The notes below the pieces were generated by a model that worked only from the letters and a program-made list of their open reading frames with translations, made no database searches and was not told the DNA's origin. 64,000 bases of DNA, from the IMG/VR virus record IMGVR_UViG_3300017971_000201, positions 1 through 64,000 of that record, one strand, 5' to 3'. The position numbers and the translations under genes are program-made. Below are positions 1 through 47,026 of the stretch, one piece after another (the stretch's first letter is position 1; each line of letters starts with the position of its first letter). This DNA is from a virus.

Positions 1-608
1 CGCAGTGGCTTGTGTTTCGGCTCGGAGCGGTTTCCCCATCGCCAGACGTTGCAGATCCTCTCGGCCGCCGCGCGCCCGTCTGAACTGCTTCGCACCAGGC
101 GCAGCTCGGGCACCAGCTGGGCGATCTCCTCGAGCATCGGCCGGATGTCCTCACCGAGCCGAGCACACGCGATCGAGACGTCCTCGCCCAGGACGAGGAA
201 CTGTAGCGCGGAGATAGCCCGCGTCCTCCTGCACGCGCGCGAGCCGGTCGCCTTCTCTCGCAGGTCTGCGCTGACCAGGTCGTTCGAACGGCGCAGGTTC
301 TCGCCCACGCCGAGCCACATGGACGCCCCCCAGAACTCGACGAAGCCGTCCTCGATCGCGTTGTGCACCAGCTTGAGCATCGGCCGATCGATCGCGTCGA
401 GCACCTTTGGATCGGATCGCGCGAGGTGGCACATCTCGTGATCGCAATCGGCGCGGAGATGCAGAAGCGCCGTGTCATCGACCTCCTCCGGCAGCGGACG
501 GACGTGCATCACGCGAGAGTGGAGATCGGCGTACGGGGTCTCGGCATCGTAGACGACCGTCACCCCTTCGCTCAGCAGCCCGGTGACGACAGACTGCTGC
601 GCGTCCAT
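1..608 (-). CDS. vWA-family protein with zincin-like N-terminal domain, partial (runs off left edge)
   Basis: The frame opens at an ATG at 608, 14 bases after the stop of the upstream AAA+ gene, and runs off the window, so only about 202 residues are visible. Residues 56-61 read DHEMCH, followed about 22 residues on by NAIEDGF. A histidine-glutamate helix motif followed by an N..ED element is the layout of the metallopeptidase-like N-terminal half of CobT/CoxE-type vWA proteins. The C-terminal vWA domain expected for that family lies outside the window. Being next to a MoxR-type ATPase supports the call, because these families form chaperone-like ATPase/vWA pairs. Exact role unknown. Confidence 0.7.
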   Translation of the reverse strand, partial: MDAQQSVVTGLLSEGVTVVYDAETPYADLHSRVMHVRPLPEEVDDTALLHLRADCDHEMCHLARSDPKVLDAIDRPMLKLVHNAIEDGFVEFWGASMWLGVGENLRRSNDLVSADLREKATGSRACRRTRAISALQFLVLGEDVSIACARLGEDIRPMLEEIAQLVPELRLVRSSSDGRAAAERICNVWRWGNRSEPKHKPL

Positions 609-622
609 CAGCGCGCGGCGGT

Positions 623-1825
623 CTACCACTTCGTGCCGTAGATCCGGTTGAGCGTCTCGGGCATCTTGGCCGCGTCCTCGGGGATCGCTCGGTTGAGGAC
701 CGCGAACTCCCAGGCGCGCCTGGGCGTGTGACCGCGCGCGAGGTTGCGAGCCACCGCCAGCGTGCGCCGCAGTGTGCACGTGAACATGATCTCGTCGCCC
801 TCACGGAGCGAGGCCCGGAACGCGTTGGCCGCCGCCACGATCCGCTTCGCCTGGACCTCGCTGATCCCGGTCCGGCCGCAGAGGATGGTCACCTCGTCAT
901 CGGGCTCGGGGTAGGTCACCCGGATCGTGACCTCCCACCGGTCAAGGAACGCCTCGTCCTGGTGAGACCGGCCGTGGTAGAGCCCACGGTCGTCGCCGCG
1001 TCCCTCGGTGTTCTGCGTGCCGACGATCCGCAGCTCGGGATGACGCTGCACGATCGCGTCCTTCCCCTTGCGCACGATGTGCATCTCCTCGCCGTCGAGG
1101 AGGCGGTAGACCGAGTACATGGCCTCGGCCGGCGCGGCGTCCACTTCATCAAACAAGAGCCCGTCCCCGTGCTGACTGGCCAGCACCGGGTTAGTCGGCG
1201 AGAACTTGGTGGCCTGCTTGCCGTTCTCCACGATCAGATCGAAGTCGCCCTCCAGATCGTTCGCGTTGAGCCTGGGCGTACAGGAGACGACGCGGAGGAG
1301 CTGGCCGCGCTCCTTGAAGATCTCCTTCACCGCTCGGCTCTTGCCGGAGCCAGCCGGTCCGATCAAGAGCACGGTCGCCCCCTCGTCCACGAACGCCTTG
1401 AGATCGGCGTACCACGCGGGCTTGAGGTAGAAGTCCGGGTCAGCCTTGCCGTTCTTCTTCGGCAGCGCTGGCCGCGCCGGCCTCATCGCGAGCACCTTGT
1501 TCACCATCCCGTCCTGTCCGACGAAGAACGAGACACCACGGGAGGCGGCCTCCTTGACGAACGCCGGGTGCGCGATGATCTCGGCTCCAGATAGCGGCAG
1601 TCGCTCGGTGACCAACAACTTCTCCTCGAAGCCATCTCCTAGCCCGCTCGCCATGGTGACCAACTCGGAGGCAAGATCCGGCGCGATAACGGTTCGCGCA
1701 TTCCTGGCCAGCATGTTGTCCAGAGGACCGTTGGTGGGAGGCGGTTCTGGAGGAGGATCCAGCGGCGTGAGACCTCCCCGGCTCTTCAGCGCCCTGATCA
1801 CCTCTGAGGCTTTGGATCGCGACAT
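623..1825 (-). CDS. MoxR-like AAA+ ATPase
   Basis: 400 residues. Walker A is GPAGSGKS at about residues 156-163, and Walker B is LLFDEVDAAP near residue 225. A sensor-1-like GTQNTEG follows, then an arginine-finger region and a helical C-terminal lid. MoxR ATPases remodel or insert cofactors into partner proteins together with vWA proteins, and the gene just downstream is such a partner. The ATG at 1825 was chosen because AGGAGAG lies just upstream; the frame is open for 38 more codons, but those overlap the primase gene. The first ~140 residues precede the ATPase core and look unrelated to it. A second MoxR/vWA pair lies at 32.7-35.1 kb. Confidence 0.85.
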   Translation of the reverse strand: MSRSKASEVIRALKSRGGLTPLDPPPEPPPTNGPLDNMLARNARTVIAPDLASELVTMASGLGDGFEEKLLVTERLPLSGAEIIAHPAFVKEAASRGVSFFVGQDGMVNKVLAMRPARPALPKKNGKADPDFYLKPAWYADLKAFVDEGATVLLIGPAGSGKSRAVKEIFKERGQLLRVVSCTPRLNANDLEGDFDLIVENGKQATKFSPTNPVLASQHGDGLLFDEVDAAPAEAMYSVYRLLDGEEMHIVRKGKDAIVQRHPELRIVGTQNTEGRGDDRGLYHGRSHQDEAFLDRWEVTIRVTYPEPDDEVTILCGRTGISEVQAKRIVAAANAFRASLREGDEIMFTCTLRRTLAVARNLARGHTPRRAWEFAVLNRAIPEDAAKMPETLNRIYGTKW

Positions 1826-1835
1826 CTTGTCTCTC

Positions 1836-2936
1836 CTACCACTTGATCTCGCCCAGGATGATCTCCGCCGTCTCGAAGGCGTAGACGATCTCCTCGTCGG
1901 ACATGCTTCCCGGGTCAGAGAACTCCCTGTACTCCTCACCGGTCTCCTCGTCCTCCCAGACGCGCACCGGGCACCGCATCAGCTTTAGCATGAGCGCGTC
2001 GTCGAGCAGGTAGTGGATCTTCTCAGCCATCCGGCGCCCTGCCGAGTCGCCGTCCGCGAAGATGTAGACGACCGGCGGCCAGGCGCCGCGCACGATGCGC
2101 CGGTGGTCCGACGAGAAGCCCTCGCCCATGGTCGCGGCCACGTTGACGCCGCGATCGTGCAGGGCCATCCAGGTGCGCACCGCATCCAGCGGCCCCTCGA
2201 CCAGCACGACCGGTAGCTGCTTCACCTTCCAAGTGTGGACGCCATAGAGATAGCGGGTCTTGTTGAGGCCCAAGTAGTTGTGGTACTTGGTGACCTCGAT
2301 CCCACGGTTCGCGGCCCGGCACTGCGCCGCCGGCGTGATCCTGCCGGTCATGCCCACCAGCGCACCGTCGCTCCGCCGAACCGGGAAGACGAGCCGTCCC
2401 TGCTGCTCGTCGTAGCCAAGGTCCCAGACGGCGGCGGCCTCTGTGTCGACCCCTCGCTCGATCGCGTACCTCGGGATCCTCCTGGCGAACGGCGCGAACA
2501 CGGACTCCTCGAGCACGTCACGTTCGACCTCGCGCGGCGGCAGCGGCGTCGGATTGCGCTCCTCGCTCTGTTGGATCTCGAGCTGCTCCCTCATCCGCCG
2601 GGCACGCGCCTCCGGGTTGTCCTGCTCGGTCTTGGCGATCTCCTCCAGCAACGCGAGCAGGTGCTCGGGAGGGCTCGGTGACGAGAGGATCGCCTTCTGG
2701 AGCAGCCCGAAAAAGGTGCCGTTGTAGCCGCAGTTCCCGCTGAAGCACTTGGCGTAGCTCAAGCCGTCCGGGTCAACCGATACCGAGCAGCCCTTGTTGC
2801 GGTCGTCGGGATCGCCGTGCGTGATGGGAGCAAGTGGGCAGGCTATCGAGATGTTCGGACCGCGCTTGGTGTTGCGGACACGGCCGTGGCGCAGGCCAAG
2901 TGCGTGGCAGACGTTGGCGATACCATCAGCGTCCAC
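1836..2936 (-). CDS. DNA primase-like protein with zinc finger and TOPRIM domain
   Basis: 366 residues from a GTG that overlaps the stop of the helicase gene (TAGTG). The N-terminus has a zinc-ribbon-like set of cysteines (ACPLAP near residue 33, then KCFSGNCGYNG near residue 65), resembling the CHC2 finger of DnaG-type primases. A TOPRIM core follows: VVLVEGPLDAVR, then VVYIFADGDSAGRRMA, carrying the acidic residues expected to bind metal. The role is RNA primer synthesis at the fork; the neighbours are DnaB-like helicase, loader and clamp. It is shorter than bacterial DnaG and shows no separate helicase-binding domain, as in many phage primases. Confidence 0.85.
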   Translation of the reverse strand: MDADGIANVCHALGLRHGRVRNTKRGPNISIACPLAPITHGDPDDRNKGCSVSVDPDGLSYAKCFSGNCGYNGTFFGLLQKAILSSPSPPEHLLALLEEIAKTEQDNPEARARRMREQLEIQQSEERNPTPLPPREVERDVLEESVFAPFARRIPRYAIERGVDTEAAAVWDLGYDEQQGRLVFPVRRSDGALVGMTGRITPAAQCRAANRGIEVTKYHNYLGLNKTRYLYGVHTWKVKQLPVVLVEGPLDAVRTWMALHDRGVNVAATMGEGFSSDHRRIVRGAWPPVVYIFADGDSAGRRMAEKIHYLLDDALMLKLMRCPVRVWEDEETGEEYREFSDPGSMSDEEIVYAFETAEIILGEIKW

Positions 2937-5680
2937 TAGAAGGGAATCCCTCCCTCCTCTGGCGACGGCGGCGCCTCACCGCCGGGTCCAAGGGGCTCAT
3001 CGGTGTCAGCGCCCTCGTTATCTGCTTCGAGTGTTTCTGGCGCGGACGCCACTTGCGCCTCCGGCACCGAACCATCCGGCAGTCCGCTGACAATCGGCGT
3101 CGGCTCGGCATCTGGGTCAGGCGCAGCACCTACGCCGCCGCCCCCTTCCCCATTAGCACCAGCAGCCGACTTGTTGTCGTCCATGATCTTGATCTGGCTG
3201 AAGTCCATCGTGGCTAGGTTGAACGCGATCTGGATGTCCACACCACGGAACTCGCGCGACTCCATGGCCCGGAACACTCGCTTGCCGATGCGCTCGTGGT
3301 CCTCATCCATGAAGATCCCGCGCATCGCGTCGGCCCAGTCGCCGATCGCCTTCGCGTAGGCCGCATCGTCGGCGTCGGCCTCCAGCGCGTGCTTGGACTT
3401 GGTCCCACGGAACTGGGTAGTCGCCAGGACAGGCACGTTCATCTCGGAGCAGAGGTCGAGTTTGATCTCGGCGCAGTTCTGGATCGTGCGCTCCCACATT
3501 CCCATCCGGCGGTCACGGCCGAGGATATACATCCCGTCGATCGCGACGGCCTTGGGGTTCAACTCGGCGACCTTGTCGCAGATGTCGGACACATCGCGAA
3601 CGACATCGGCGCAGGCGATGTGGATGTCCTTCCGCGTCGGGTCGGGAGTCATGATCGACTTGACGTGGTCCTGGAGCCGGCGCTCCTCCTCGCTGGTGAG
3701 CTTCCCGGATCGGAACCCCTGGTAGTTCAGCAGCAGGTCGATCGCTGCCAGCCGGCGGTAGATCTGCTTCTTGGGCATCTCCATCGACACGACCAGGAGA
3801 CACTTGCCGGGCTTCAGGTCTTTCTTCGACCGTAGAATGTGCATGAACCAGACGAGCATCAGCCAGGTGTTGTGCGTGATGATGTCGCCGGCGAGGAAGC
3901 ACTCGGTTCCGGGCACGGCGATGTCGAGGCACGGGCGCGGCCCAATCTCCTCGATCTTCACGATCTCGTCCCACTGGATGTTCTCGTCCAGCACCCACAC
4001 CAGCGGCGAGTCGTAGACCTCGCAGAAGGCGGAGAACACGCGCCGGCGAATCCGCCCGCTCTTGCTGTCGAACACATGCCCCTTCTGGAACTTGAACCCG
4101 TAGCCCAGCTCCTCACCGACCTCCGGCAGCAGGTCGGGTCGGGCGTCCATCTCGGCGCAGATCTCGTCGCGCAGCTCCTCGTTGCGAATCCAGCCGATGC
4201 GCGAACGGCCCTGGAACTTGACCTGCTCCAGCGCCTCAGCCTTCGGTCCGACCAGCTGGACGTGCCGCTTGAACCGCTCGATCCGCTCACGGTGGACGAT
4301 GACCTCGTAGTAGTCGCGAGGCCCGTCCTCGGTCTCGCGCGGCATGGTGCGCAGGTGGCTGGTAACCCCAAAGCGCAGCAGAAGGTGCTGGATCTGCTCG
4401 GCCATCTTCTGCGAACCGGTCGAGTAGCTGACCTGCCCGCGCTTGCCCACGCAGCCGTCGCACGACCAGAGGCGCCCGATGAACAAGCCGAGCTGCGCGG
4501 TCGGGAGCGAGAAGATGCCAGGTGGAATCGTCTTGTCGATGTCCTTCTTACCGAGCAGGTTGTTGTTCCGCAGCAGCTCGACGATGCCGTTACGGCCGCC
4601 GTGCTCGGTCGTGACGTAGTAGTCACCATCTCCGCGCGGCGAGAGCTTGTGCCCGCTCCGCGCCAGCGTCTCCGACATCTCGGCGACGATCTCTGGCACC
4701 GAGCTGGTGAAGCTGGGCGTCGAGGGCTTCGTGCAACCGCCTTCGGCGATCATGTAGGCCAGAACGATCAGCGTCTCCGGTGCCGCCGGAGCCGCCTCTG
4801 TCGGCTCCGGGATGACGGCCGCCGCGCCAGTGTGCTGCCCGACCTCCAGCTCCACGGCCGGAACCCAGCCACGCGGCGCCAGGAACGGATGGTCCTTGGA
4901 CGTGTCGAGCGTGCGCCCGGAGCGCCAGGTCAGGCGCAGGCAGTCCTTGGTCCCGGAGTCCAGGTAGTCGGACGGCCGAGCCACCGCAATGGGACCGCGC
5001 TTCTCCCACGTCAGCACGAACGCGCGGTCTGCGACGACCTCGCGCAGCGTCGTCTCCATGCCGGTGCGCGGATCGTACATCGGCGTGTAGTCCGGGATGC
5101 TTTTCCCGACCTTGCGCTTGGCCAACAGAACCGTCAGCTCGCCGGGCTGGAGACCGAGGCTGTACTTGTCCACGTCCAGCCAGGGGGACGACAGCCCGAG
5201 CAGCTCGCCGGCGTTGTCGCGTGCCCTCTCGTAGTCGCCGAGAGTCTCTTGCGCTAGCGCCGGGTCGGCATACGACGCGACCTTGCCCAAGCTCCAGGCG
5301 GTCTCGCGAACCAGCTGAGACATCTTCTTCCTGGCCTCGAACGGGTCGGTCACGATCAGCGTGGCGATCTCCCCGAACGGATCCTTCATCGCGTTCTGGA
5401 GAGCGCGCCTCTGGATCTGGCCGGCGAAGACGTCAACGTCGAACGGCTCAATCGAAGAGTCCGGTACGATCAGCGAGACACCGGTCTTGGCCTTGATCTC
5501 GATCACGGTCGGCAGACGGCCGCTGCGGACGAACTGGCCCATGAACGCGAAGACCTTTTGGTCCTCGTCCAGTACGTGCTCCGGTTCGACACCGTGCTCG
5601 CGCGCACGAAAGTAGGCGGCGGTGTCGTTGGCCTGGAGAATGCCGTAGAGCATCGCTCGGTCGAGCGTGATCTCGTCCAT
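2936..5680 (-). CDS. dnaB: Replicative DnaB-type DNA helicase interrupted by an intein
   Basis: The 914-residue frame starts at an ATG at 5680 that overlaps the stop of the loader gene (TGATG), with AGGTGGAG upstream. The extein is about 503 residues: a helical N-terminal domain, a linker, then a RecA-like motor. The motor's Walker A (KRKVGK) is cut by the intein after the lysine; splicing rebuilds KVGKT. Downstream are VVSMEMPKKQ, a Walker B-like AVAIDGM, and ATTQFRG near the C-terminal motifs. The C-terminal 60 residues are acidic and proline-rich. It unwinds DNA as a hexamer at the fork. The neighbours (DnaC-like, DnaN-like, primase) make it the phage replisome helicase. Confidence 0.9.
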   Translation of the reverse strand: MDEITLDRAMLYGILQANDTAAYFRAREHGVEPEHVLDEDQKVFAFMGQFVRSGRLPTVIEIKAKTGVSLIVPDSSIEPFDVDVFAGQIQRRALQNAMKDPFGEIATLIVTDPFEARKKMSQLVRETAWSLGKVASYADPALAQETLGDYERARDNAGELLGLSSPWLDVDKYSLGLQPGELTVLLAKRKVGKSIPDYTPMYDPRTGMETTLREVVADRAFVLTWEKRGPIAVARPSDYLDSGTKDCLRLTWRSGRTLDTSKDHPFLAPRGWVPAVELEVGQHTGAAAVIPEPTEAAPAAPETLIVLAYMIAEGGCTKPSTPSFTSSVPEIVAEMSETLARSGHKLSPRGDGDYYVTTEHGGRNGIVELLRNNNLLGKKDIDKTIPPGIFSLPTAQLGLFIGRLWSCDGCVGKRGQVSYSTGSQKMAEQIQHLLLRFGVTSHLRTMPRETEDGPRDYYEVIVHRERIERFKRHVQLVGPKAEALEQVKFQGRSRIGWIRNEELRDEICAEMDARPDLLPEVGEELGYGFKFQKGHVFDSKSGRIRRRVFSAFCEVYDSPLVWVLDENIQWDEIVKIEEIGPRPCLDIAVPGTECFLAGDIITHNTWLMLVWFMHILRSKKDLKPGKCLLVVSMEMPKKQIYRRLAAIDLLLNYQGFRSGKLTSEEERRLQDHVKSIMTPDPTRKDIHIACADVVRDVSDICDKVAELNPKAVAIDGMYILGRDRRMGMWERTIQNCAEIKLDLCSEMNVPVLATTQFRGTKSKHALEADADDAAYAKAIGDWADAMRGIFMDEDHERIGKRVFRAMESREFRGVDIQIAFNLATMDFSQIKIMDDNKSAAGANGEGGGGVGAAPDPDAEPTPIVSGLPDGSVPEAQVASAPETLEADNEGADTDEPLGPGGEAPPSPEEGGIPF
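3869..5101 (-). other. Intein in the DnaB helicase, with LAGLIDADG endonuclease domain
   Basis: 411 codons inside the helicase gene. It begins with serine right after the Walker A lysine and ends FLAGDIITHN before a threonine, giving the terminal His-Asn and the +1 hydroxyl residue needed for splicing. Two LAGLIDADG-like helices are visible, LAYMIAEGG and LFIGRLWSCDG, so it probably encodes a homing endonuclease. The insertion point is the most conserved spot of the ATPase, a known hot spot for inteins. Confidence 0.88.
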
Positions 5681-16721: not shown

Positions 16722-18395
16722 GTGGCGAACAAGGCCATCTTCCAGGGCGCGACCGCAGGTCGCTCCGTTCCCGCAACCGACACCGTGAACAATGCCGGAG
16801 GCCGGGCATACGAGTTCGGCCCGAAGCACGCGCTCGCACAGCTGGCGTGCACCGGCACCTTCAACGAGACCTTCTACGGCACTGCCGTCGACCAGCTCGA
16901 GGGCATCCGCAAGGCGGCCGACCAGGTCGAGCCCACCTTCCTCGCCAAGTGCGCGGTCTACGCGCGCCAGAAGGGCGGGATGAAGGACATGCCGGCGGCA
17001 CTCATCGTCATGCTGTCGAAGGCCGACCCGGCCCTGTGCTCGCTCGTCTTTCCCCTGGTCATCGACAACGGGAAGATGGTCCGCAACCTGGTCCAGATGG
17101 TCCGCTCCGGCGCGCTCGGCCGGAAGTCGATGGGGTCTGGCCTCAAGCGGCTCGTCAACAAGTGGATCCAGCAGCGGTCGGCGCGCGCGCTCTTCCGCGC
17201 GACTGTGGGGAAGAGCCCCAGCCTGGCCGATGTGATCCAGCTCACTCACCCGAAGGCGAAGGACGAGGAGCAGAAGGCCCTCATCGGCTACATCCTCGGC
17301 CGAGAGCACGACGCGTCCAAGCTGCCTGGCATCGTCCAGCACTACGAGGCGTTCAAGCGCGGCGAGTCGGACGAGGTCCCCGACGTGGACTTCCGGCAGC
17401 TCACCTCGCTGCCGCTCAAGCCGCATCACTGGGCGCAGATCGTCCGCAACGGCGGATACCAGTTCACCATCAAGAACCTCAACACGGCGGCGCGCCACGG
17501 CGTGTTCGACGCGCCTGGGCTGTCCGAGCTGATCGCGGCCCGGATCGCCAACCGTGAGGAGCTGGAGAAGGCCAGGATCTTCCCCTACCAGCTGCTCGTG
17601 GCCTATCTGAACGCGGGCAGGCACCCGGACCCGACCTACCAGCGGTACATGGCCTACTTCCGTCGCCACAATGAGACGGCACGCTCTGAGATCGACCTGC
17701 CCGACTCGGTCAGGGACTCTCTCCAGGACGCGATGGAGGCGGCGACCGAGAACGTCCCCAGCTTCGGCGTGCCCACGGCGGTGATCGTGGACGTCAGCGG
17801 CTCGATGCAGTCCCCGGTCACGGGCGAGCGGAAGGGCTCGACGACCAAGGTCCGATGCGTGGACGTGGCCGGCCTCATGGCAGCCACCGTGCTTCGCCGG
17901 AACAAGGGTTCGATCGTGATCCCCGTGGACGCCGACGTCCACAGCACGCGGATCGTCAACCCGCGCGACACGGTCGTGACGAACGCCATCAAGCTGTCCC
18001 AGATGGGTGGCGGCGGGACCAACCTCTCGCTGGCCCTTTCCCACCTGAACAAGCTGAAGAGGTCGCACGAGTTCAAGCTCGTGATCATCGTCAGCGACAA
18101 CGAGTCGTGGGTCGACTCTCGCGGGTGCGCGGGCTACTACGGCCGTGGAACCCGGCTCATGGATGAGTTCCGCCAGCTCCAGCAGAAGGCCGGCGGCGCG
18201 CGGATGGTCTGCATCGACATCACGCCGAACAGGAGCACCCAGGCGCCGAGCGCGCCGGACGAGATCATGAACATCGGTGGGTTCTCGGACTCGATCTGGA
18301 GTACCATCAACCGCTTCGCGGCCGGCGACACGCACGACGTGGACGCCTGGGTCGCAGAGATTGAGGCGATCAGCCTCGAGCAGCCGGAGGTGTAA
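16722..18395 (+). CDS. rsr: Ro60/TROVE-domain RNA-binding protein with vWA domain
   Basis: 557 residues, the length of bacterial Ro (Rsr) proteins. Residues ~15-350 form the helical-repeat TROVE ring (NETFYGTAVDQLEGI, FLAKCAVYARQKGGMKDMP, RNGGYQFTIKNLNTAARHG); the C-terminal ~200 residues are a vWA domain with a MIDAS (VDVSGSMQSP). Ro proteins bind misfolded RNAs and Y RNAs and act in RNA quality control. The GTG start has GAGGAGGGG upstream, and a TTGACA element lies 70 bases upstream. The adjacent tRNA array is a natural source of substrates. No RtcB or PNPase gene is nearby. Confidence 0.9.
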   Translation: MANKAIFQGATAGRSVPATDTVNNAGGRAYEFGPKHALAQLACTGTFNETFYGTAVDQLEGIRKAADQVEPTFLAKCAVYARQKGGMKDMPAALIVMLSKADPALCSLVFPLVIDNGKMVRNLVQMVRSGALGRKSMGSGLKRLVNKWIQQRSARALFRATVGKSPSLADVIQLTHPKAKDEEQKALIGYILGREHDASKLPGIVQHYEAFKRGESDEVPDVDFRQLTSLPLKPHHWAQIVRNGGYQFTIKNLNTAARHGVFDAPGLSELIAARIANREELEKARIFPYQLLVAYLNAGRHPDPTYQRYMAYFRRHNETARSEIDLPDSVRDSLQDAMEAATENVPSFGVPTAVIVDVSGSMQSPVTGERKGSTTKVRCVDVAGLMAATVLRRNKGSIVIPVDADVHSTRIVNPRDTVVTNAIKLSQMGGGGTNLSLALSHLNKLKRSHEFKLVIIVSDNESWVDSRGCAGYYGRGTRLMDEFRQLQQKAGGARMVCIDITPNRSTQAPSAPDEIMNIGGFSDSIWSTINRFAAGDTHDVDAWVAEIEAISLEQPEV

Positions 18396-32710: not shown

Positions 32711-33982
32711 CTAGTACTCCTCATCCTCGTCGCCCTTGTCGTCGGGAATCGAGATGTGGTCACCCCAGGTCGTGGTCGGCGGCTTGTAGTCGCCCGTGGT
32801 GACCCAGAGGCACCCCTGCATGTTGACGGGCATCCCGTTGGGCACGTCGATCATGCCGTCGGTGAACGCGATCACCGCACCGTCGAACCCGTCTTCGTCG
32901 AGCAGCTCGAAGGCCGGGCAGAAGTTCGACCCGCCGCCGCCCTTCACCTCGATCTCGCACGCCTCCTCGACGGTCATGTCCGTGTGGACCGCCGCGTCGC
33001 AGACGATCGCGCGTATCTCGCAGCCCATCTCGTCCATGATCCCCTGGGCCTCGGACATCCCGCGCCGGATCTCGCGCTGGCTCATGGAGCCGGAGCTGTC
33101 GAGCAGGAAGACCACGTCGGCGTAGCCGCCCGCGCACTGCGAGGGGAGGATCGTCCCCAGGGAGTAGGACCGGCGGTTCGGCCGCAGGAACGAGTAGTCT
33201 TCGCGACGCCCGTTCTCGCCGCACCACTTCCTGAGCAGCTCGGTCCAGTCGAGCTTCGGGTGAAGCAGCTCGTCGATGTAGCGGCGCAGGCCGGCCGGAA
33301 GCGTGCCCTTGCTCTTCGAGCGCTGCTCGTGGTGAGCCGCCGCCTCGGCGAGCGTCATCTTCCACTCGTTCTCGAGCTTCTTCTGCGCCGAGCGGTCGCC
33401 GCGCGCCGCCTTCTTGCCGTTGGGCGTGCCGGCCAGGTCGTCTCGGCAGTCGCCCCAGCCCTCTCCACCCGCGCCGTTCGTGTCGACGGTGATGGAGCCG
33501 CCACCCTTGCACTTGATCTCCGTCTTCCCGGAGCCGTTGTCGCCCTTCATGAGGTAGGCGTAGATCTCCTCCATCGACATCCCGTGGAACTTGGGGTCGA
33601 GGAGCGCCCCCTTGGGCAGCTCGATCTCGCCGCACGCCATCTCCTCGATCCAGAAGTTGAAGGAGAGGTCGTGGGCGATGTTGGCGAGCAGGTGGTGCCG
33701 AGTGCCCTTCCGCGCCCAGAACAGGAGGGCCGGGTGGAGCGCCTCGTGGGCGACCACGCCGGCGATCTCCTTGTCGGAGAGCGTGGCAAGGTACTCGACG
33801 CTGAAGATGGCCGTGCCGTCCCGGGAGATCCCGGCCGTCTTGATCCCGTCTTCGGGCCGCGCGGCGCGGGGAGCCATGTTCATGGCGATCCGACCCAGGA
33901 AGGGGAGGCGCGCGACGAGCCTCGTGCGCGCCTTCCCGATCACGTAGGTGACATCGATCGCTGGGGCTTCGGAGCCGCTCAC
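32711..33982 (-). CDS. vWA/zincin-like protein (DUF2201-type), partner of MoxR ATPase
   Basis: 423 residues from a GTG that overlaps the ATPase stop (GTGA). The N-terminal half has VVAHEALHPALLFW (HExxH-like, the metallopeptidase-like domain of DUF2201 proteins) followed by NIAHDLSFNFWIEEM. The C-terminal half is a vWA-like domain: VVFLLDSSGSMSQRE (MIDAS), then GGGGSNFCPAFE and VIAFTDGMID. Such proteins are remodelled by, or act with, MoxR ATPases. This duplicates the arrangement at 1-1825 with a diverged sequence. Confidence 0.8.
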   Translation of the reverse strand: MSGSEAPAIDVTYVIGKARTRLVARLPFLGRIAMNMAPRAARPEDGIKTAGISRDGTAIFSVEYLATLSDKEIAGVVAHEALHPALLFWARKGTRHHLLANIAHDLSFNFWIEEMACGEIELPKGALLDPKFHGMSMEEIYAYLMKGDNGSGKTEIKCKGGGSITVDTNGAGGEGWGDCRDDLAGTPNGKKAARGDRSAQKKLENEWKMTLAEAAAHHEQRSKSKGTLPAGLRRYIDELLHPKLDWTELLRKWCGENGRREDYSFLRPNRRSYSLGTILPSQCAGGYADVVFLLDSSGSMSQREIRRGMSEAQGIMDEMGCEIRAIVCDAAVHTDMTVEEACEIEVKGGGGSNFCPAFELLDEDGFDGAVIAFTDGMIDVPNGMPVNMQGCLWVTTGDYKPPTTTWGDHISIPDDKGDEDEEY

Positions 33983-35121
33983 TTGGTCGACTCCGCGAAG
34001 AACTTGAGGACCGCGAGAACCCTCGGATCCTTCTTGTTCTTGTCGGCGGCGTCCACCAGCTTCGAGACGTCGCCACCGTTGGCCTGGAAGACCGAAACAC
34101 CAGCCGCCACGCACTCACGGCTCTTCTGGGAGACGTGCGCCAGGGCGAGGAGGAGCTTGATGTAGATCTTCTTGTCCTTGTCCTGGTTCATGGCGGCGAA
34201 CTCGCCGAGCGCCGTGACGAGCGCGGCCAGCCGGTCGGGCTCCTCGGGCGGGTGAGGCATCGCCTTCTCGGGATCGTCGAGCACTGCCTTCGGGTTCGGC
34301 AGCTCCTTCTGGAGCTTCACGAAAGAGACGAACTCGGTCCCGACGCCGGACCCGACCAGCCCCTCGGCCACGGCGCGGAGCGGACCGAAGTCGCCCTTCC
34401 CGAACTTGAGCGCATCCTCGTAGAGGAGACCGAGGTTGTGCCAGCTCCGGGGGGTGGCGAACTGACCGTTCTCCTTGTCCGCCTGGTTCGGGAGCTGGGA
34501 GAAGAACGCGGGCTTCCACGTGAGGAAGCCGCCGACCACCGGGGGGAGGCTCTGGCTCGCGGCCCAGTACATCCACTCCTCCAGCTCGGGCTCCAGGCTG
34601 ACCAGGCAGACCCGGTTGCGGAGCGGGGAGGGCAGCTCGCGGGCGCCCGCCTTGTCGCTGGCCCGGTTGCCGGTGAGGATGATCCGCACGTTGGGGCTCA
34701 GCTCGAGGTCACCCATGCTGCGCTCCTGGACGAGCTGGAAGCAGGCCGTCTGGACGGCGCGCTGCGCCTGGGTGATGTCCTCGAGCACGAGGACCCCGTA
34801 GGGATCGGAGCCGTCCGGCCCAGCCCCTTTGGCGAGCTGGCCGAGGAACTTGGGCGGGCAGAAGTCGGTGAACCGCTGCTCGGTCTTGTCGAACGTGACC
34901 GTGACCATGAACGGGACACCGCTCATGTCTTCCGGGAGGTGGCCCGTCAGCTCCCGTCTGACGGTCAGACCAGTCGTGCCCACCTTGGCGGCGCGCGCCT
35001 GCTCGGCCGCCCCGATCGCCTGGGCGAGCGCCGACTTTCCGATGCCGGGCCGGCCCAGGAAGAACAGCGGCACGCTGGGTGGTAGAACGGCCGCTAAGTT
35101 GAGGATCTCGTTGAAGTTCAT
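33979..35121 (-). CDS. MoxR-like AAA+ ATPase
   Basis: 380 residues. Walker A is FFLGRPGIGKSALA (residues ~20-33), Walker B is GVLVLEDITQA, sensor-1 is RIILTGNRASD, then an arginine-finger segment and a helical C-terminal half. Upstream are AGAGGAGAG, a GGTAGAAC box and the bipartite leader motif, so it heads a regulated operon running to about 30 kb. Its partner is the vWA/zincin gene downstream. Confidence 0.85.
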   Translation of the reverse strand: MNFNEILNLAAVLPPSVPLFFLGRPGIGKSALAQAIGAAEQARAAKVGTTGLTVRRELTGHLPEDMSGVPFMVTVTFDKTEQRFTDFCPPKFLGQLAKGAGPDGSDPYGVLVLEDITQAQRAVQTACFQLVQERSMGDLELSPNVRIILTGNRASDKAGARELPSPLRNRVCLVSLEPELEEWMYWAASQSLPPVVGGFLTWKPAFFSQLPNQADKENGQFATPRSWHNLGLLYEDALKFGKGDFGPLRAVAEGLVGSGVGTEFVSFVKLQKELPNPKAVLDDPEKAMPHPPEEPDRLAALVTALGEFAAMNQDKDKKIYIKLLLALAHVSQKSRECVAAGVSVFQANGGDVSKLVDAADKNKKDPRVLAVLKFFAESTK

Positions 35122-35148: not shown

Positions 35149-35156
35149 GTTCTACC
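35149..35156 (-). promoter_or_regulatory. GGTAGAAC promoter-like box
   Basis: GGTAGAAC on the minus strand, 27 bases before the ATPase ATG, followed by AGAGGAGAG. It lies downstream of the bipartite leader at 35225-35254. Confidence 0.55.
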
Positions 35157-35224
35157 CGGGTCTCGGGCGCGCCTGTGCCAGATTCCGAAAGAGCTGAGGA
35201 GGCGATCCGTTTCGTCTCCTCACC

Positions 35225-35254
35225 CCTCCCAACAACTCAGCGATTCATTCTCAC
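35225..35254 (-). promoter_or_regulatory. Bipartite leader motif (GTGAGAAT, GAGTTGTTGGGAGG)
   Basis: On the minus strand GTGAGAAT is followed after 8 bases by GAGTTGTTGGGAGG. Same pair with 7-8 base spacing at 44426, 46022 and 46131. Confidence 0.6.
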
Positions 35255-36597: not shown

Positions 36598-38403
36598 CTA
36601 CAGGCCGTTCCAGTCCTTGAGAAAGAGCCGCTCTTCGGCGGCGATCTTGTTGATCTCCTCGTTGAGGTTCTCCACGTCGCCGAACTCATTCCAGTCTACG
36701 CGGAGGACGCGAGTGTAGCGCGACATCACGTCGGCGAGCATCTCGTGCTTGTCATGGATGCGGCGGAGGTAGTCGAGGGGCACGCCGGCCTCCTCGGTGC
36801 GGGCGCGGCGTTTCATGCGGTCGTGGCAGGTCTTGGGGTCAGTCCGCAGGTAGACGATCACGTCAGGGTAGCGGACAAAGCGCTTCAGCGTCCCGAACGT
36901 ATCCTCGTAGATTCCCCACTCGGCCGACGTCATGTTGCCGTCCTCGAAGACGGTCCGGCCGAAGCAGCCATCGGCGAAGATCGTGCGGTCCTGCACGACA
37001 TCGACGCCGTTGTTCGTCAGCTCAGCCGCCAGGGTGTGCTGACGGAACCGAGCCTGGAGCGCGTGCATCTGGAACGTGAACCCCCAGCGCTTGGGGTCGG
37101 CGTAGTAGAGGCCGAGCAGCTCCTTGAAGCGTCCCTTGAGCGGCTCGAACAGGACGTGGGTCGGGCCATCGTAGCCGGTACGGAGTCGCGCGAGCATGTT
37201 GGCACACTCGGTGTTGTGCGTCACCTGGAAGTTCCCGAGCAGGAACCGGCCGTCCCCGTCGAGTGTGAAGCCGGCGTAATCGCCTCGACCCAACGGCTCG
37301 ACCGTGAAGCCGAATCGCAGCGGATTCTTCTTCTGCTTGCGTGGTTGGGGCTTCTTACGCTCGACGCGCATAGGCAGGAACGTCATGTCGCCAGAGATGG
37401 ACATTCGGTAGTAGGAGCGGTCGTAGCCCGGTACGGTCTTGATCGAACGCACAACCCGCAGTCCCAGAGAGCGCGCGACGAAGGTGATGTCGTCGGCGAG
37501 ATGCTCACCCCGCTGGATGATCTCGAAGGAGCCCTTGCACAGGTGCCCGTCCGTGTCGAGAAGCCCGGCCAGCAGCCTTGCTCTGATCTCGCGCGAACCG
37601 TACTTGCAGCGCGCGGGAATGCTGTAGCCGTAGTCCCGCTGCTCCGGCGCCATCAGATGCCGCAGCTTCTCCAGCAGCGGGTTGCCTTTCCCGTCGCGCA
37701 CGAGCCCGAACGTCGGGCAGCGGTCGGGATAGTCGTAGCGGCTCAGGCGGCACCCCTCGGTTGGAGCGAAGTCGCGCAGGTAGTCAATCAGCTCCTCGTC
37801 CGGGAACGTCAGCTGGACACCCTGGCTGAGATCCTTGCGACCATCCCCCAGCCAGAGGCCGATGAAGTAGGGGTCGATCTCCGGCTCGATCACCGGCGGG
37901 AAATCGACCGGAACGGTGAACAGCTTTTGTCTCTCACGCCACGTCTTGTCACGTGTCAGGAACTCGTTGAGTGGAATGTCGATGACCTCGTCCGTCAGCG
38001 TATCCACGACGGTCAGCACGTGTACGTCGTTGCAGATCCACGACGGCGCGCGTTTCGGCTTGATCTCGAACATGGGGCCGGTGCCGCGAGTCGTCGAGCG
38101 CACCTCGCGCGGCTGGCTGTCCGGCCCCATGAGCCGCTGGCCAACCTCGAGTCCACCGGCCTTGACGGTGTGACCATCGTAGAGCAGCACCGGCGTTTCC
38201 GGGTCCAGGCACTTCCCTGTACCGATGTTGGCCTCGATCCCAACGAAGAGACCGCGCCGCTCGCGAAGGTGGGGAAGGGCCTGCATGATCGCGTTCGTGT
38301 CGATCTCCTGAATCGCCTGCATCTGGGCCTGCACGTCGGCCTCCTCGTGTTCGTCGTCTTTGGGTTGGTTGGACATGCTGTTTCCGTCCGATCCGCCGGT
38401 CAT
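36598..38403 (-). CDS. Deoxynucleoside kinase interrupted by an intein
   Basis: 601 codons as written. The extein (~268 residues) has GIEANIGTGK cut by the intein and resumed as TECANMLARL, so splicing rebuilds the P-loop GTGKT. Downstream are QDRTIFADGCFG (the ERS/DR-type segment), PDVIVYLRTDPKTCHDRMKRR and RIHDKHEML (LID), as in the dCK/dGK/dNK family that phosphorylates deoxynucleosides. The start is 38403 or the ATG at 38376. Pairs with thymidine kinase in dNTP salvage. Confidence 0.85.
   Translation of the reverse strand: MTGGSDGNSMSNQPKDDEHEEADVQAQMQAIQEIDTNAIMQALPHLRERRGLFVGIEANIGTGKCLDPETPVLLYDGHTVKAGGLEVGQRLMGPDSQPREVRSTTRGTGPMFEIKPKRAPSWICNDVHVLTVVDTLTDEVIDIPLNEFLTRDKTWRERQKLFTVPVDFPPVIEPEIDPYFIGLWLGDGRKDLSQGVQLTFPDEELIDYLRDFAPTEGCRLSRYDYPDRCPTFGLVRDGKGNPLLEKLRHLMAPEQRDYGYSIPARCKYGSREIRARLLAGLLDTDGHLCKGSFEIIQRGEHLADDITFVARSLGLRVVRSIKTVPGYDRSYYRMSISGDMTFLPMRVERKKPQPRKQKKNPLRFGFTVEPLGRGDYAGFTLDGDGRFLLGNFQVTHNTECANMLARLRTGYDGPTHVLFEPLKGRFKELLGLYYADPKRWGFTFQMHALQARFRQHTLAAELTNNGVDVVQDRTIFADGCFGRTVFEDGNMTSAEWGIYEDTFGTLKRFVRYPDVIVYLRTDPKTCHDRMKRRARTEEAGVPLDYLRRIHDKHEMLADVMSRYTRVLRVDWNEFGDVENLNEEINKIAAEERLFLKDWNGL
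37213..38211 (-). other. Intein in the deoxynucleoside kinase, with LAGLIDADG domain
   Basis: 333 codons. First residue Cys (CLDPETPVLLYDGH), last residues VTHN before Thr. LAGLIDADG-like helices FIGLWLGDG and LLAGLLDTDGH are present. It interrupts the P-loop at the same lysine/threonine point as the helicase intein, though the sequence and first residue (Cys versus Ser) differ. Confidence 0.88.
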
Positions 38404-44132: not shown

Positions 44133-44410
44133 TAGTCAGCCTCCTTCGCCATTGCGGCCAGCTCCTCGTCGGTCTTCCGCCGCCACGTCCGCTTCTCACG
44201 GATGTCGAGTCCCAGGTGCCGCCTCATGATGTAGAGGGCGCGCGTGGTGAGCTGGCTGGGGGTGTTGAGCACCGCGCTCCGGTCGGCCGGGAAGTACACG
44301 ATCGACCGCTCGCTGTTCGTGACGTAGACCTTGCGCTCGTCGATCTGGACGGTGTAGCCGGCCAGCTCGGCATCGCGCAGTAGCCGTTGGAACGGCTTGG
44401 TTAAGGTCAT
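44132..44410 (-). CDS. Hypothetical protein, 92 aa
   Basis: Begins MTLTKPFQRLLRDAELAGYT; GAGGAGGAC before the ATG, downstream of a bipartite leader motif. A short beta-hairpin region (VQIDERKVYVTNSERSIVYF) is followed by helices. No family recognised. Confidence 0.6.
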   Translation of the reverse strand: MTLTKPFQRLLRDAELAGYTVQIDERKVYVTNSERSIVYFPADRSAVLNTPSQLTTRALYIMRRHLGLDIREKRTWRRKTDEELAAMAKEAD

Positions 44411-44425
44411 CTGTCCTCCTCATCT

Positions 44426-44454
44426 CTCTCAACAACCTCGCCGGCTGTTCTCAC
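44426..44454 (-). promoter_or_regulatory. Bipartite leader motif (GTGAGAAC, GAGGTTGTTGAGAG)
   Basis: On the minus strand GTGAGAAC, 7 bases, GAGGTTGTTGAGAG, then GAGGAGG and the ATG at 44410. Confidence 0.6.
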
Positions 44455-45739: not shown

Positions 45740-46005
45740 CAGATCTCTCCGTTCCAGGCGAGGCAGTTCTCGCTGCCATCGCACGCTTCGAGTCCTTCGT
45801 TCATGCGCTCTCGCAGGTCCCGCCAGACCTCGACTGAGCACTCATCAGGGGCCTGTGAGGAGACCAGCTCGTGCACGCCGCTGTAGGCGAAGTGGAAGCC
45901 GTCGGGGGCGGTGACCGTGACCTCGATACCGTCCAGGTGACGGCCCTGATCGACCACGGCCCCGAGATCGGCGGCCATCTTCAGCACTCGCTGCTTGGGT
46001 GTCAC
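45739..46005 (-). CDS. Hypothetical protein, 88 aa
   Basis: GTG at 46005 chosen for AAGGAGG six bases upstream. VTPKQRVLKMAADLGA, then GIEVTVTAPDGFHF: a small alpha/beta fold. Downstream of a GGTAGAAC box and a bipartite leader. No family recognised. Confidence 0.6.
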   Translation of the reverse strand: MTPKQRVLKMAADLGAVVDQGRHLDGIEVTVTAPDGFHFAYSGVHELVSSQAPDECSVEVWRDLRERMNEGLEACDGSENCLAWNGEI

Positions 46006-46021
46006 GCGATCCTCCTTCATC

Positions 46022-46060
46022 CCTCTCAACAACCTCACCTCCTGTTCTCACGGTTCTACC
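46022..46060 (-). promoter_or_regulatory. GGTAGAAC box and bipartite leader, left-facing
   Basis: On the minus strand GGTAGAAC (46060-46053), then GTGAGAAC, 7 bases, GAGGTTGTTGAGAGG. Both recurrent elements occur side by side here. Confidence 0.6.
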
Positions 46061-46130
46061 CAGGACCGGTCCGGCGCGGCCCGGAAGCCTGGGTATAACC
46101 CCTGATAGCCCAGCAACATCGGATTTCCGT

Positions 46131-46160
46131 GTGAGAACCGAGAGCGGAGTTGTTGGGAGG
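46131..46160 (+). promoter_or_regulatory. Bipartite leader motif, right-facing
   Basis: GTGAGAAC (46131-46138), 8 bases, GAGTTGTTGGGAGG (46147-46160), then GGAGG and the GTG at 46178. With the left-facing copy it makes a divergent control region. Confidence 0.6.
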
Positions 46161-46177
46161 GGTGAAGGAGGAGTCAA

Positions 46178-47026
46178 GTGGGACTCAAGAAGGTCAGCAA
46201 GAAGACGCTCGCGAAGAAGACGCTCACGGACGGGATCCAGGTCCCCTGGAACCTGTGCCTCGACTACCTGCTCGCCGGGCGGGCGGTCGTCACGCTCGTT
46301 GACGTTGCCACCACCAAGCGGCACACCTACTTCGTCTCCCGCGCCGTGGACGAGGTGAAACAGGACGACGGGACGACCAAGGAGATCGAGAAGGACCGCT
46401 GGTTCGTCCACGTGCTCCACGGCTCCGGCGTCAGCCGGCGCTACTCCTACATCGGCGTGATCGACGACGTGCACGGCGTCCGCCGGTTCCGCACCACGAA
46501 TGGGACCAAGACGGCCGCGACCGCCGAGAACATCAACCTGATCGGCGACACGACCAAGTGGCTCGTGGACGGCACCGACGCGTCCCACAAGATCAAGTTC
46601 TGGCACCGTGGCTTCTGCGCTCGCTGCTGCGCGGAGCTGACCGTGCCCGAGTCGATCGCGACCGGCTTCGGCCCGGTCTGCGCCGCCACGATGGGGATCG
46701 AGATGAAGAAGGTCGCGCCGAGCGCGATCGAGAAGCTCGCCGCGCTCTCGCCGGTCGAGGGCGAGGGCGAGCCGGCGCCGGTCGAGGAGGCGCCCAAGCC
46801 GATGGCCCAGGTGGTCAAGGACGCCTTCGACGCACTCGAGGTCGAGACGGACTGCGGACACGAGCCCGAGGCGCCCAAGGAGAAGGCCGCCAAGGTCGTC
46901 GAGCTGCCGGCCGCCGATCCGCTGCGGCCCGTGGCCGAGGCACTGGCCAGCATGAGCGTGGACGAGATCCACGCGTGGCTGAAGCAGCTCATGCCCGCCG
47001 CGCCGGCCAAGAAGGAGACGGCGTGA
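46178..47026 (+). CDS. DUF6011-like zinc-binding protein with SAIEKLAAL motif
   Basis: 282 residues, GTG start with GGAGG upstream. Residues ~145-170 (WHRGFCARCCAELTVPES, then GFGPVCAA) form the CxxC...GxGPxC zinc motif of DUF6011-like phage/actinobacterial proteins. Next comes APSAIEKLAALSPVEG, the recurrent motif, then an acidic, alanine/proline-rich linker and a helical end. Function unknown; nucleic-acid binding is plausible. Confidence 0.65.
   Translation: MGLKKVSKKTLAKKTLTDGIQVPWNLCLDYLLAGRAVVTLVDVATTKRHTYFVSRAVDEVKQDDGTTKEIEKDRWFVHVLHGSGVSRRYSYIGVIDDVHGVRRFRTTNGTKTAATAENINLIGDTTKWLVDGTDASHKIKFWHRGFCARCCAELTVPESIATGFGPVCAATMGIEMKKVAPSAIEKLAALSPVEGEGEPAPVEEAPKPMAQVVKDAFDALEVETDCGHEPEAPKEKAAKVVELPAADPLRPVAEALASMSVDEIHAWLKQLMPAAPAKKETA

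What the first reader, a model, noticed from the sequence alone, without database searches (positions are those of the whole stretch)
35225..35254. A conserved bipartite leader before at least four operons
GTGAGAA(C/T), 7-8 bases, then GAG(G)TTGTTG(G/A)GAGRG occurs at 35225-35254, 44426-44454, 46022-46051 (all left-facing) and 46131-46160 (right-facing), always in gaps and always oriented towards a gene start. Exact spacing and orientation indicate function: a promoter for a phage sigma factor or modified host polymerase with a fixed initial transcript, or a translational enhancer.
Basis: seen in the sequence. Interest (0 to 1): 0.8.

Follow-up and report, generated by a model that had tools for sequence, protein, structure and literature searches.

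The report
Phage-specific start-site promoter module
A large uncultured bacterial virus repeats the same two-part DNA signal, with a fixed gap, about 45 bases before selected genes; close relatives use a different two-part signal at the same genes, which suggests a virus-specific gene switch, probably a promoter, that changes as the viruses diverge.

Summary
The four repeats exist, and the pattern is stronger than first reported. The spacing is constant: GTGAGAAY-N10-GTTGTTGRRAGRG. There are 8 perfect copies in the 160-kb record and no near-misses. All lie in gaps, and seven of the eight point at a gene start. The 275-kb relative G001 has 13 copies. A further copy is on G003, which matches the window's left end exactly over 788 bp and so continues this genome. 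A matrix from the 22 copies separates them completely from background (34.6 bits or more, against 9 or less). At 17 of 22 sites the start codon follows at 44-51 nt.

Two sister phages lack this sequence but carry different bipartite motifs at the same place: TGCAACTCS-N11-GTGTYRA in G006 (22 sites) and TGTAGAACTTYYGGCCAGC-GTTGTTR in G007 (6 sites). All four orthologues found in G006, and the one found in G007, carry them. A second motif, GGGTAGAAC-N6-ATG, looks like a leaderless promoter element.

Best reading: a phage-specific promoter plus short leader, read by RNA polymerase carrying a phage-encoded specificity factor. G003 encodes a protein with a sigma-70 region 2. This is inferred; no transcript start was mapped. 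A translational, start-associated-sequence role remains the main rival. New variant of a known kind.

The parts
35224..35254 (-). Class B motif copy 1: block 1 GTGAGAAT (35247-35254), 10-nt spacer, block 2 GTTGTTGGGAGGG (35224-35236); 133 nt before the AAA-ATPase gene 33979-35121
35192..35217 (-). Hairpin GAGGAGACG..CGCCTCCTC between motif and ATPase gene that would mask the purine-rich (Shine-Dalgarno-like) stretch; a comparable hairpin is in G001 and another in G006 (approximate coordinates)
   Evidence: sequence; fold
35149..35157 (-). Class A element GGGTAGAAC between the class B motif and the ATPase start codon
   Evidence: present in G001 and as GGGTAGAAG in G006
44424..44454 (-). Class B motif copy 2: block 1 GTGAGAAC (44447-44454) overlapping the stop codon of the upstream gene, block 2 GTTGTTGAGAGAG (44424-44436); start codon ATG at 44410
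46021..46051 (-). Class B motif copy 3: block 1 GTGAGAAC (46044-46051), block 2 GTTGTTGAGAGGG (46021-46033); start codon GTG at 46005 of an 88-aa gene ahead of ADP-ribosylglycohydrolase
46131..46161 (+). Class B motif copy 4: block 1 GTGAGAAC (46131-46138), block 2 GTTGTTGGGAGGG (46149-46161); start codon GTG at 46178 of the DUF6011 gene
46053..46061 (-). Class A element GGGTAGAAC one base upstream of block 1 of copy 3
46091..46099 (+). Class A element GGGTATAAC 40 nt upstream of copy 4

Best explanation
The motif ('class B') is a phage-specific promoter fused to a short leader of fixed layout. RNA polymerase carrying a phage-encoded specificity factor recognises it, and the short transcript reaches a Shine-Dalgarno sequence within a few bases. 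Shown here: the bipartite sequence, rigid spacing, position, orientation, and replacement by other bipartite sequences at the same genes in sister phages. Inferred: that it acts in transcription, that a phage factor reads it, and which factor. The sigma-region-2 protein on contig G003 (26821-27717) is a candidate only. The register is unresolved. Register 1 (start near motif position 33, counting block 1 from 0): both blocks are upstream, at about -33 to -26 and -15 to -5. Register 2 (start near position 15): block 1 is a -10-like element akin to class A GGGTAGAAC, and block 2 is the first transcribed sequence.
For: 22 sites in three contigs score 34.6-48.4 bits and nothing else exceeds 9. An unbiased gapped-word search upstream of starts ranks the pair at or next to the top. 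At orthologous G000/G001 sites block 1 is 96% and block 2 91% identical, against 60% in the spacer. Five of 22 sites have no start codon at 44-51 nt yet keep both blocks, and 129537 has lost the Shine-Dalgarno position: the motif does not depend on an adjacent start codon. At 46051 and its G001 counterpart a class A element sits 1-3 nt upstream, so a class A transcript would start inside block 1; block 1 is nevertheless conserved, as expected of a DNA signal. Sister phages carry different bipartite motifs at the same genes, as shown experimentally for phiEco32 and 7-11, whose diverged sigma factors use different promoters at similar positions (PMC8948821). Sigma-70 region 2 protein: Pfam E=1.5e-5, above the gathering score in G001; the 84% identical G003 copy is below it. 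G003 overlaps the window's left end by 788 identical bases. 21 of 22 sites have pyrimidine-purine at positions 32/33.
Against: No transcript data. The distance to the start codon is tight (44-51 nt), as expected of a translation signal. A gap of 11 nt between GTGAGAA and GTTGTTG is too short for ordinary -35/-10 elements (general knowledge), and no -35 is seen upstream of block 1. The sigma-like protein has only modest support: below the gathering score in G003, AlphaFold pLDDT 57, Foldseek matches to sigma-E region 2 with E about 0.75. No homologue was found in the G006 and G007 records, which may be fragments.
Confidence: 0.55

Rival explanations
1. It is an RNA-level translation-initiation signal in the 5' leader, like the Start-Associated Sequences of mycobacteriophages: both blocks are transcribed from an upstream promoter and bind a phage protein or the ribosome just upstream of the Shine-Dalgarno sequence.
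For: At 17 of 22 sites the start codon is 44-51 nt from the motif and a Shine-Dalgarno sequence follows block 2. Some sites have a class A element 23-79 nt upstream that could supply the transcript. Published SAS elements have a similar layout (PMC3203893).
Against: Five sites have no adjacent start codon, and the ATPase site keeps the motif 133, 128 and 109 nt away in three lineages. No consistent fold of the leader (z-scores scatter around 0). At two sites the class A transcript would lack part of block 1. Most sites have no class A element upstream.
Confidence: 0.25
2. It is the binding site of a phage activator or repressor protein that overlaps ordinary host-type promoters; the two blocks contact two protein domains.
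For: Rigid spacing and invariant blocks suit a DNA-binding protein; motif turnover between sisters would also follow from divergence of a regulator. Small HTH proteins are encoded.
Against: The blocks are asymmetric and always in one orientation towards the gene, immediately ahead of it; simple repressor sites are usually symmetric and less fixed relative to the start codon. No consensus host promoter is visible beside most sites.
Confidence: 0.13
3. It is an ECF-sigma promoter in the usual sense, with GAAC as -35 and GTT as -10.
For: Block 1 ends in GAAC and block 2 contains GTT; Foldseek weakly matches the sigma-like protein to sigma-E region 2.
Against: The AAC-to-GTT distance is 10 or 13 nt at every site, against about 16-18 for known ECF promoters (general knowledge).
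Confidence: 0.04
4. It encodes a conserved leader peptide, GTG AGA ACN NNN NNN NNN GTT GTT GRG AGR.
For: The gap keeps the frame, and 17 of the 21 G000/G001 sites are open through the motif.
Against: Four of 21 sites have TGA inside the motif. Third codon positions in the blocks are as invariant as the others, and the changes seen are not preferentially synonymous.
Confidence: 0.02

Closest known systems
[quoted passage not shown]
   Same: Short, highly conserved, oriented repeats just upstream of start codons of non-structural genes, about 10-20 per genome; an upstream part proposed to contain a promoter; the ESAS consensus differs between subclusters; absent from hosts.
   Different: Class B has no 13-bp GGGATAGGAGCCC-type Shine-Dalgarno block and no 17-bp inverted repeat, and its two blocks have a rigid 10-nt gap. 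The phages have T4-type capsids, not siphovirus genomes.
Promoters for phage-encoded sigma factors of phiEco32 and 7-11 (PMC8948821)
   Same: Few, highly conserved copies per genome (about 6-8); single-element or bipartite; promoter sequence differs between related phages while positions are kept; the phage encodes a sigma factor.
   Different: 7-11 uses a 16-nt gap (GTAAtg-16-aCTA) and phiEco32 a single element (tAATGTAtA); here the gap is 10-11 nt and is followed by conserved purines. Transcription has not been tested here.
Leaderless -10 promoters of Deinococcus-Thermus (PMC12340547), for the class A motif
   Same: A -10-like element a few bases before the start codon, with no need of a -35.
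   Different: Class A is a nearly invariant 9-mer GGGTAGAAC rather than TANNNT, and is found here in phages of unknown host.
T7-type promoters read by a single-subunit phage RNA polymerase (general knowledge)
   Same: Near-invariant copies within a phage that differ between related phages, with conservation over the start of the transcript.
   Different: No such polymerase was found in the available parts of these genomes, and the sequence is split by a variable 10-nt gap.

Membership tests
Start-Associated Sequence / ESAS (cluster K type) | 13-bp GGGATAGGAGCCC-like repeat at the ribosome-binding site | tested here: not met
   The repeat is GTGAGAAY-N10-GTTGTTGRRAGRG; the Shine-Dalgarno part is less conserved than the blocks
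Start-Associated Sequence / ESAS (cluster K type) | 17-bp imperfect inverted repeat upstream (ESAS) | tested here: not met
   No inverted repeat conserved in the logo from -60
Start-Associated Sequence / ESAS (cluster K type) | Oriented towards and close to start codons of non-structural genes | tested here: met
   17 of 22 sites at 44-51 nt from a start codon
Promoter for a phage-encoded sigma factor (phiEco32/7-11 type) | Phage encodes a sigma-like protein | tested here: met
   Sigma70_r2 protein in G001 above the Pfam gathering score and an 84% identical one in G003 below it; G003 overlaps the window's genome by 788 identical bases. Modest support
Promoter for a phage-encoded sigma factor (phiEco32/7-11 type) | Conserved sequence shared by several phage transcription units | tested here: met
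Promoter for a phage-encoded sigma factor (phiEco32/7-11 type) | Transcription starts 6-9 bp downstream and needs the sigma factor | not testable with these tools
   Needs 5'-end mapping and in vitro transcription
ECF sigma promoter | -35 GGAAC-like and -10 GTT/CGTC-like elements with a spacer of about 16-18 nt | tested here: not met
   Block 1 ends in GAAC and block 2 has GTT, but AAC-to-GTT is 10 or 13 nt at all sites; ECF spacing is from general knowledge
T7-type phage RNA polymerase promoter | Phage encodes a single-subunit RNA polymerase | tested here: inconclusive
   PF00940 gave no match, but the controls were silent too; no polymerase among large unassigned proteins; genomes incomplete

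The most novel reading that the evidence does not exclude
An unrecognised clade of large phages with T4-type capsids uses a private transcription code: leaderless promoters (GGGTAGAAC-N6-ATG) shared across the clade, plus a second promoter-leader module whose bipartite sequence is rewritten in step at all copies in each lineage (three versions seen), tracking a diverging phage specificity factor. The short-gap bipartite element would be a promoter architecture not seen for known sigma factors.
Probability: 0.3. Interest if true: 0.75.

Novelty: new variant of a known kind. Interest (0 to 1): 0.55.

Why it matters
Concerted change of a signal at many sites while the controlled genes stay the same shows a regulatory code evolving with its reader. 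Here three versions at corresponding genes can be compared directly. The motifs also allow operons, missing start codons and contigs of these uncultured phages to be assigned from sequence alone.

Tried and rejected
Chance: rejected. Leader peptide: in-frame TGA at 4 of 21 sites, and nucleotide rather than codon conservation. Conserved RNA hairpin in the motif: fold z-scores scatter around 0. ECF-type promoter: spacing wrong. T7-type or multisubunit phage RNA polymerase: none found, but the search is incomplete. Bacterial occurrence: no exact match of the stricter pattern in GTDB genomes. Named phages: no DNA-level match to the window's central 20 kb; the best short hit, in Thermus phage phiLo, lies inside a gene and was taken as chance. 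Distant sigma homologues in IMG/VR: only the three close loci. AlphaFold of the sigma-like protein: low confidence; Foldseek only weakly points to sigma-E region 2. G008 and G009 show no comparable motif.

Full report
What is there. The window is the first 64 kb of a 159,664-bp IMG/VR virus record with T4-type capsid, portal and prohead protease genes, about 35 tRNA genes and a tmRNA. It has no close named relative at DNA level. I call this class B. The record holds eight perfect copies and no copy with one to four mismatches.

Relatives with the same motif. An exact-pattern scan of IMG/VR hit only five other contigs. One (G002) is 100% identical to this phage where compared. The 275-kb contig G001 is a relative at about 81% DNA identity with 13 copies. 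The 74.5-kb contig G003 has one. G003:1-788 is identical, in reverse complement, to G000:1-788, and G003 covers the part of G001 that this record lacks. G003 is therefore the continuation of the window's genome beyond its left end (inference from the overlap).

Conservation. Across 22 sites, positions 0-6 (GTGAGAA) and most of positions 19-28 are invariant or nearly so. The spacer varies. Purine-rich sequence leads into the Shine-Dalgarno region. A weight matrix gives 34.6-48.4 bits for the 22 sites and nothing else above 9 in 509 kb. In six orthologous G000/G001 pairs the blocks are 96% and 91% identical, the spacer 60% and ungapped flanks 39-60%. Gapped-word counting upstream of start codons, with no motif supplied, puts this pair at or next to the top.

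Position. All own copies lie in gaps. The start codon is 44-51 nt from the motif start at 17 of 22 sites (for G001:100905 I use the GTG at 48 nt). The exceptions are informative. The AAA-ATPase site keeps a distance of 133 nt here, 128 nt in G001, and 109 nt with the sister motif in G006. In each a hairpin and a class A-like element lie between. Site 129537 and its G001 orthologue stand 82 and 109 nt from their genes. Site 148278 faces no gene and is followed by strong hairpins, as a small-RNA promoter might be (speculation).

Sister phages. Phages with 80-81% identical capsid protein lack class B but carry other bipartite motifs at the same place: TGCAACTCS-N11-GTGTYRA in G006 (22 sites) and TGTAGAACTTYYGGCCAGC-GTTGTTR in G007 (6 sites). 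The four class B gene starts with an orthologue in G006 (ATPase, DUF6011 gene, ADP-ribosylglycohydrolase, and the gene after 112299) all carry the G006 motif, and the one found in G007 carries the G007 motif. The signal has been rewritten in step while the controlled genes and layout stayed. A single trans-acting reader is the simplest explanation. Two more distant phages, G008 and G009, show no comparable pair.

Class A. A second motif, GGGTAGAAC, occurs 29 times here (32 with one variable base, 59 in G001). In 14 of 32, 27 of 59, 18 of 36 (G007) and 6 of 13 (G003) cases a start codon lies exactly 6 nt downstream, against about 1-2 at any other offset. This is the layout of leaderless promoters read through a -10 element; an experimental parallel exists in Deinococcus-Thermus (PMC12340547). 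G007 block 1 contains its core GTAGAAC; class B here shares AGAAC.

How it works. I favour a promoter. Sites without an adjacent start codon keep both blocks. At two sites class A would start transcription inside block 1. The turnover resembles what was shown experimentally for phiEco32 and 7-11, whose sigma factors use different promoter sequences at similar positions (PMC8948821). The window's phage encodes a protein with sigma-70 region 2 on G003, a candidate reader, though the evidence is modest. Two registers fit. A start near position 33 places the blocks at about -33 to -26 and -15 to -5, and 21 of 22 sites have pyrimidine-purine there. A start near position 15 makes block 1 a -10-like element and block 2 the first transcribed bases. 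The main rival is an RNA-level translation signal, supported by the tight distance to the start codon.

Known relatives. By layout the nearest described things are the SAS/ESAS elements of mycobacteriophages and Microbacterium phages (PMC3203893, PMC11373665, PMC7302621), whose role is itself unsettled. By presumed mechanism they are phage-sigma promoters. The motif fails the defining sequence and symmetry features of SAS/ESAS, and the defining experiment for phage-sigma promoters could not be run. I therefore file it as a new variant of a known kind, not as a member of either.

Noticed in passing
window 7426-, 14809-, 35157-, 41785-, 46061-, 46091+, 47113+ and others; 32 in the record: Class A motif GGGTAGAAC, 29 exact copies against 1.6 expected, about half with ATG/GTG exactly 6 nt downstream: probably leaderless promoters.
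   Followed up: partly
whole record; also G001, G003, G007: Palindromic word GTCAGCGCTG(AC) is strongly over-represented (22 copies here, 43 in G001); function unknown.
   Followed up: no
window 2936-5680, 36598-38403; also portal and prohead protease genes: Several essential genes carry intein or homing-endonuclease domains (DnaB-like helicase, deoxynucleoside kinase, portal, protease).
   Followed up: no
window 16722-18395 +: Protein with TROVE and Ro60-type vWA domains, next to the tRNA cluster.
   Followed up: no
window 35149-35254 -: ATPase leader: class B motif, then a hairpin, then a class A element; the same order is kept in G001 and G006 with different sequences.
   Followed up: partly
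record position 148278 + (L008:5278): Class B motif with no gene behind it but strong hairpins within about 150 nt; possible small RNA.
   Followed up: partly
window 1-788: Identical to G003:1-788 in reverse complement: contig IMGVR_UViG_3300017963_000254 continues this genome.
   Followed up: yes
G006 tRNA region 46-54 kb: The G006 block-1 word TGCAACTCC also occurs in its tRNA region, apparently as T-arm sequence; probably coincidence.
   Followed up: no
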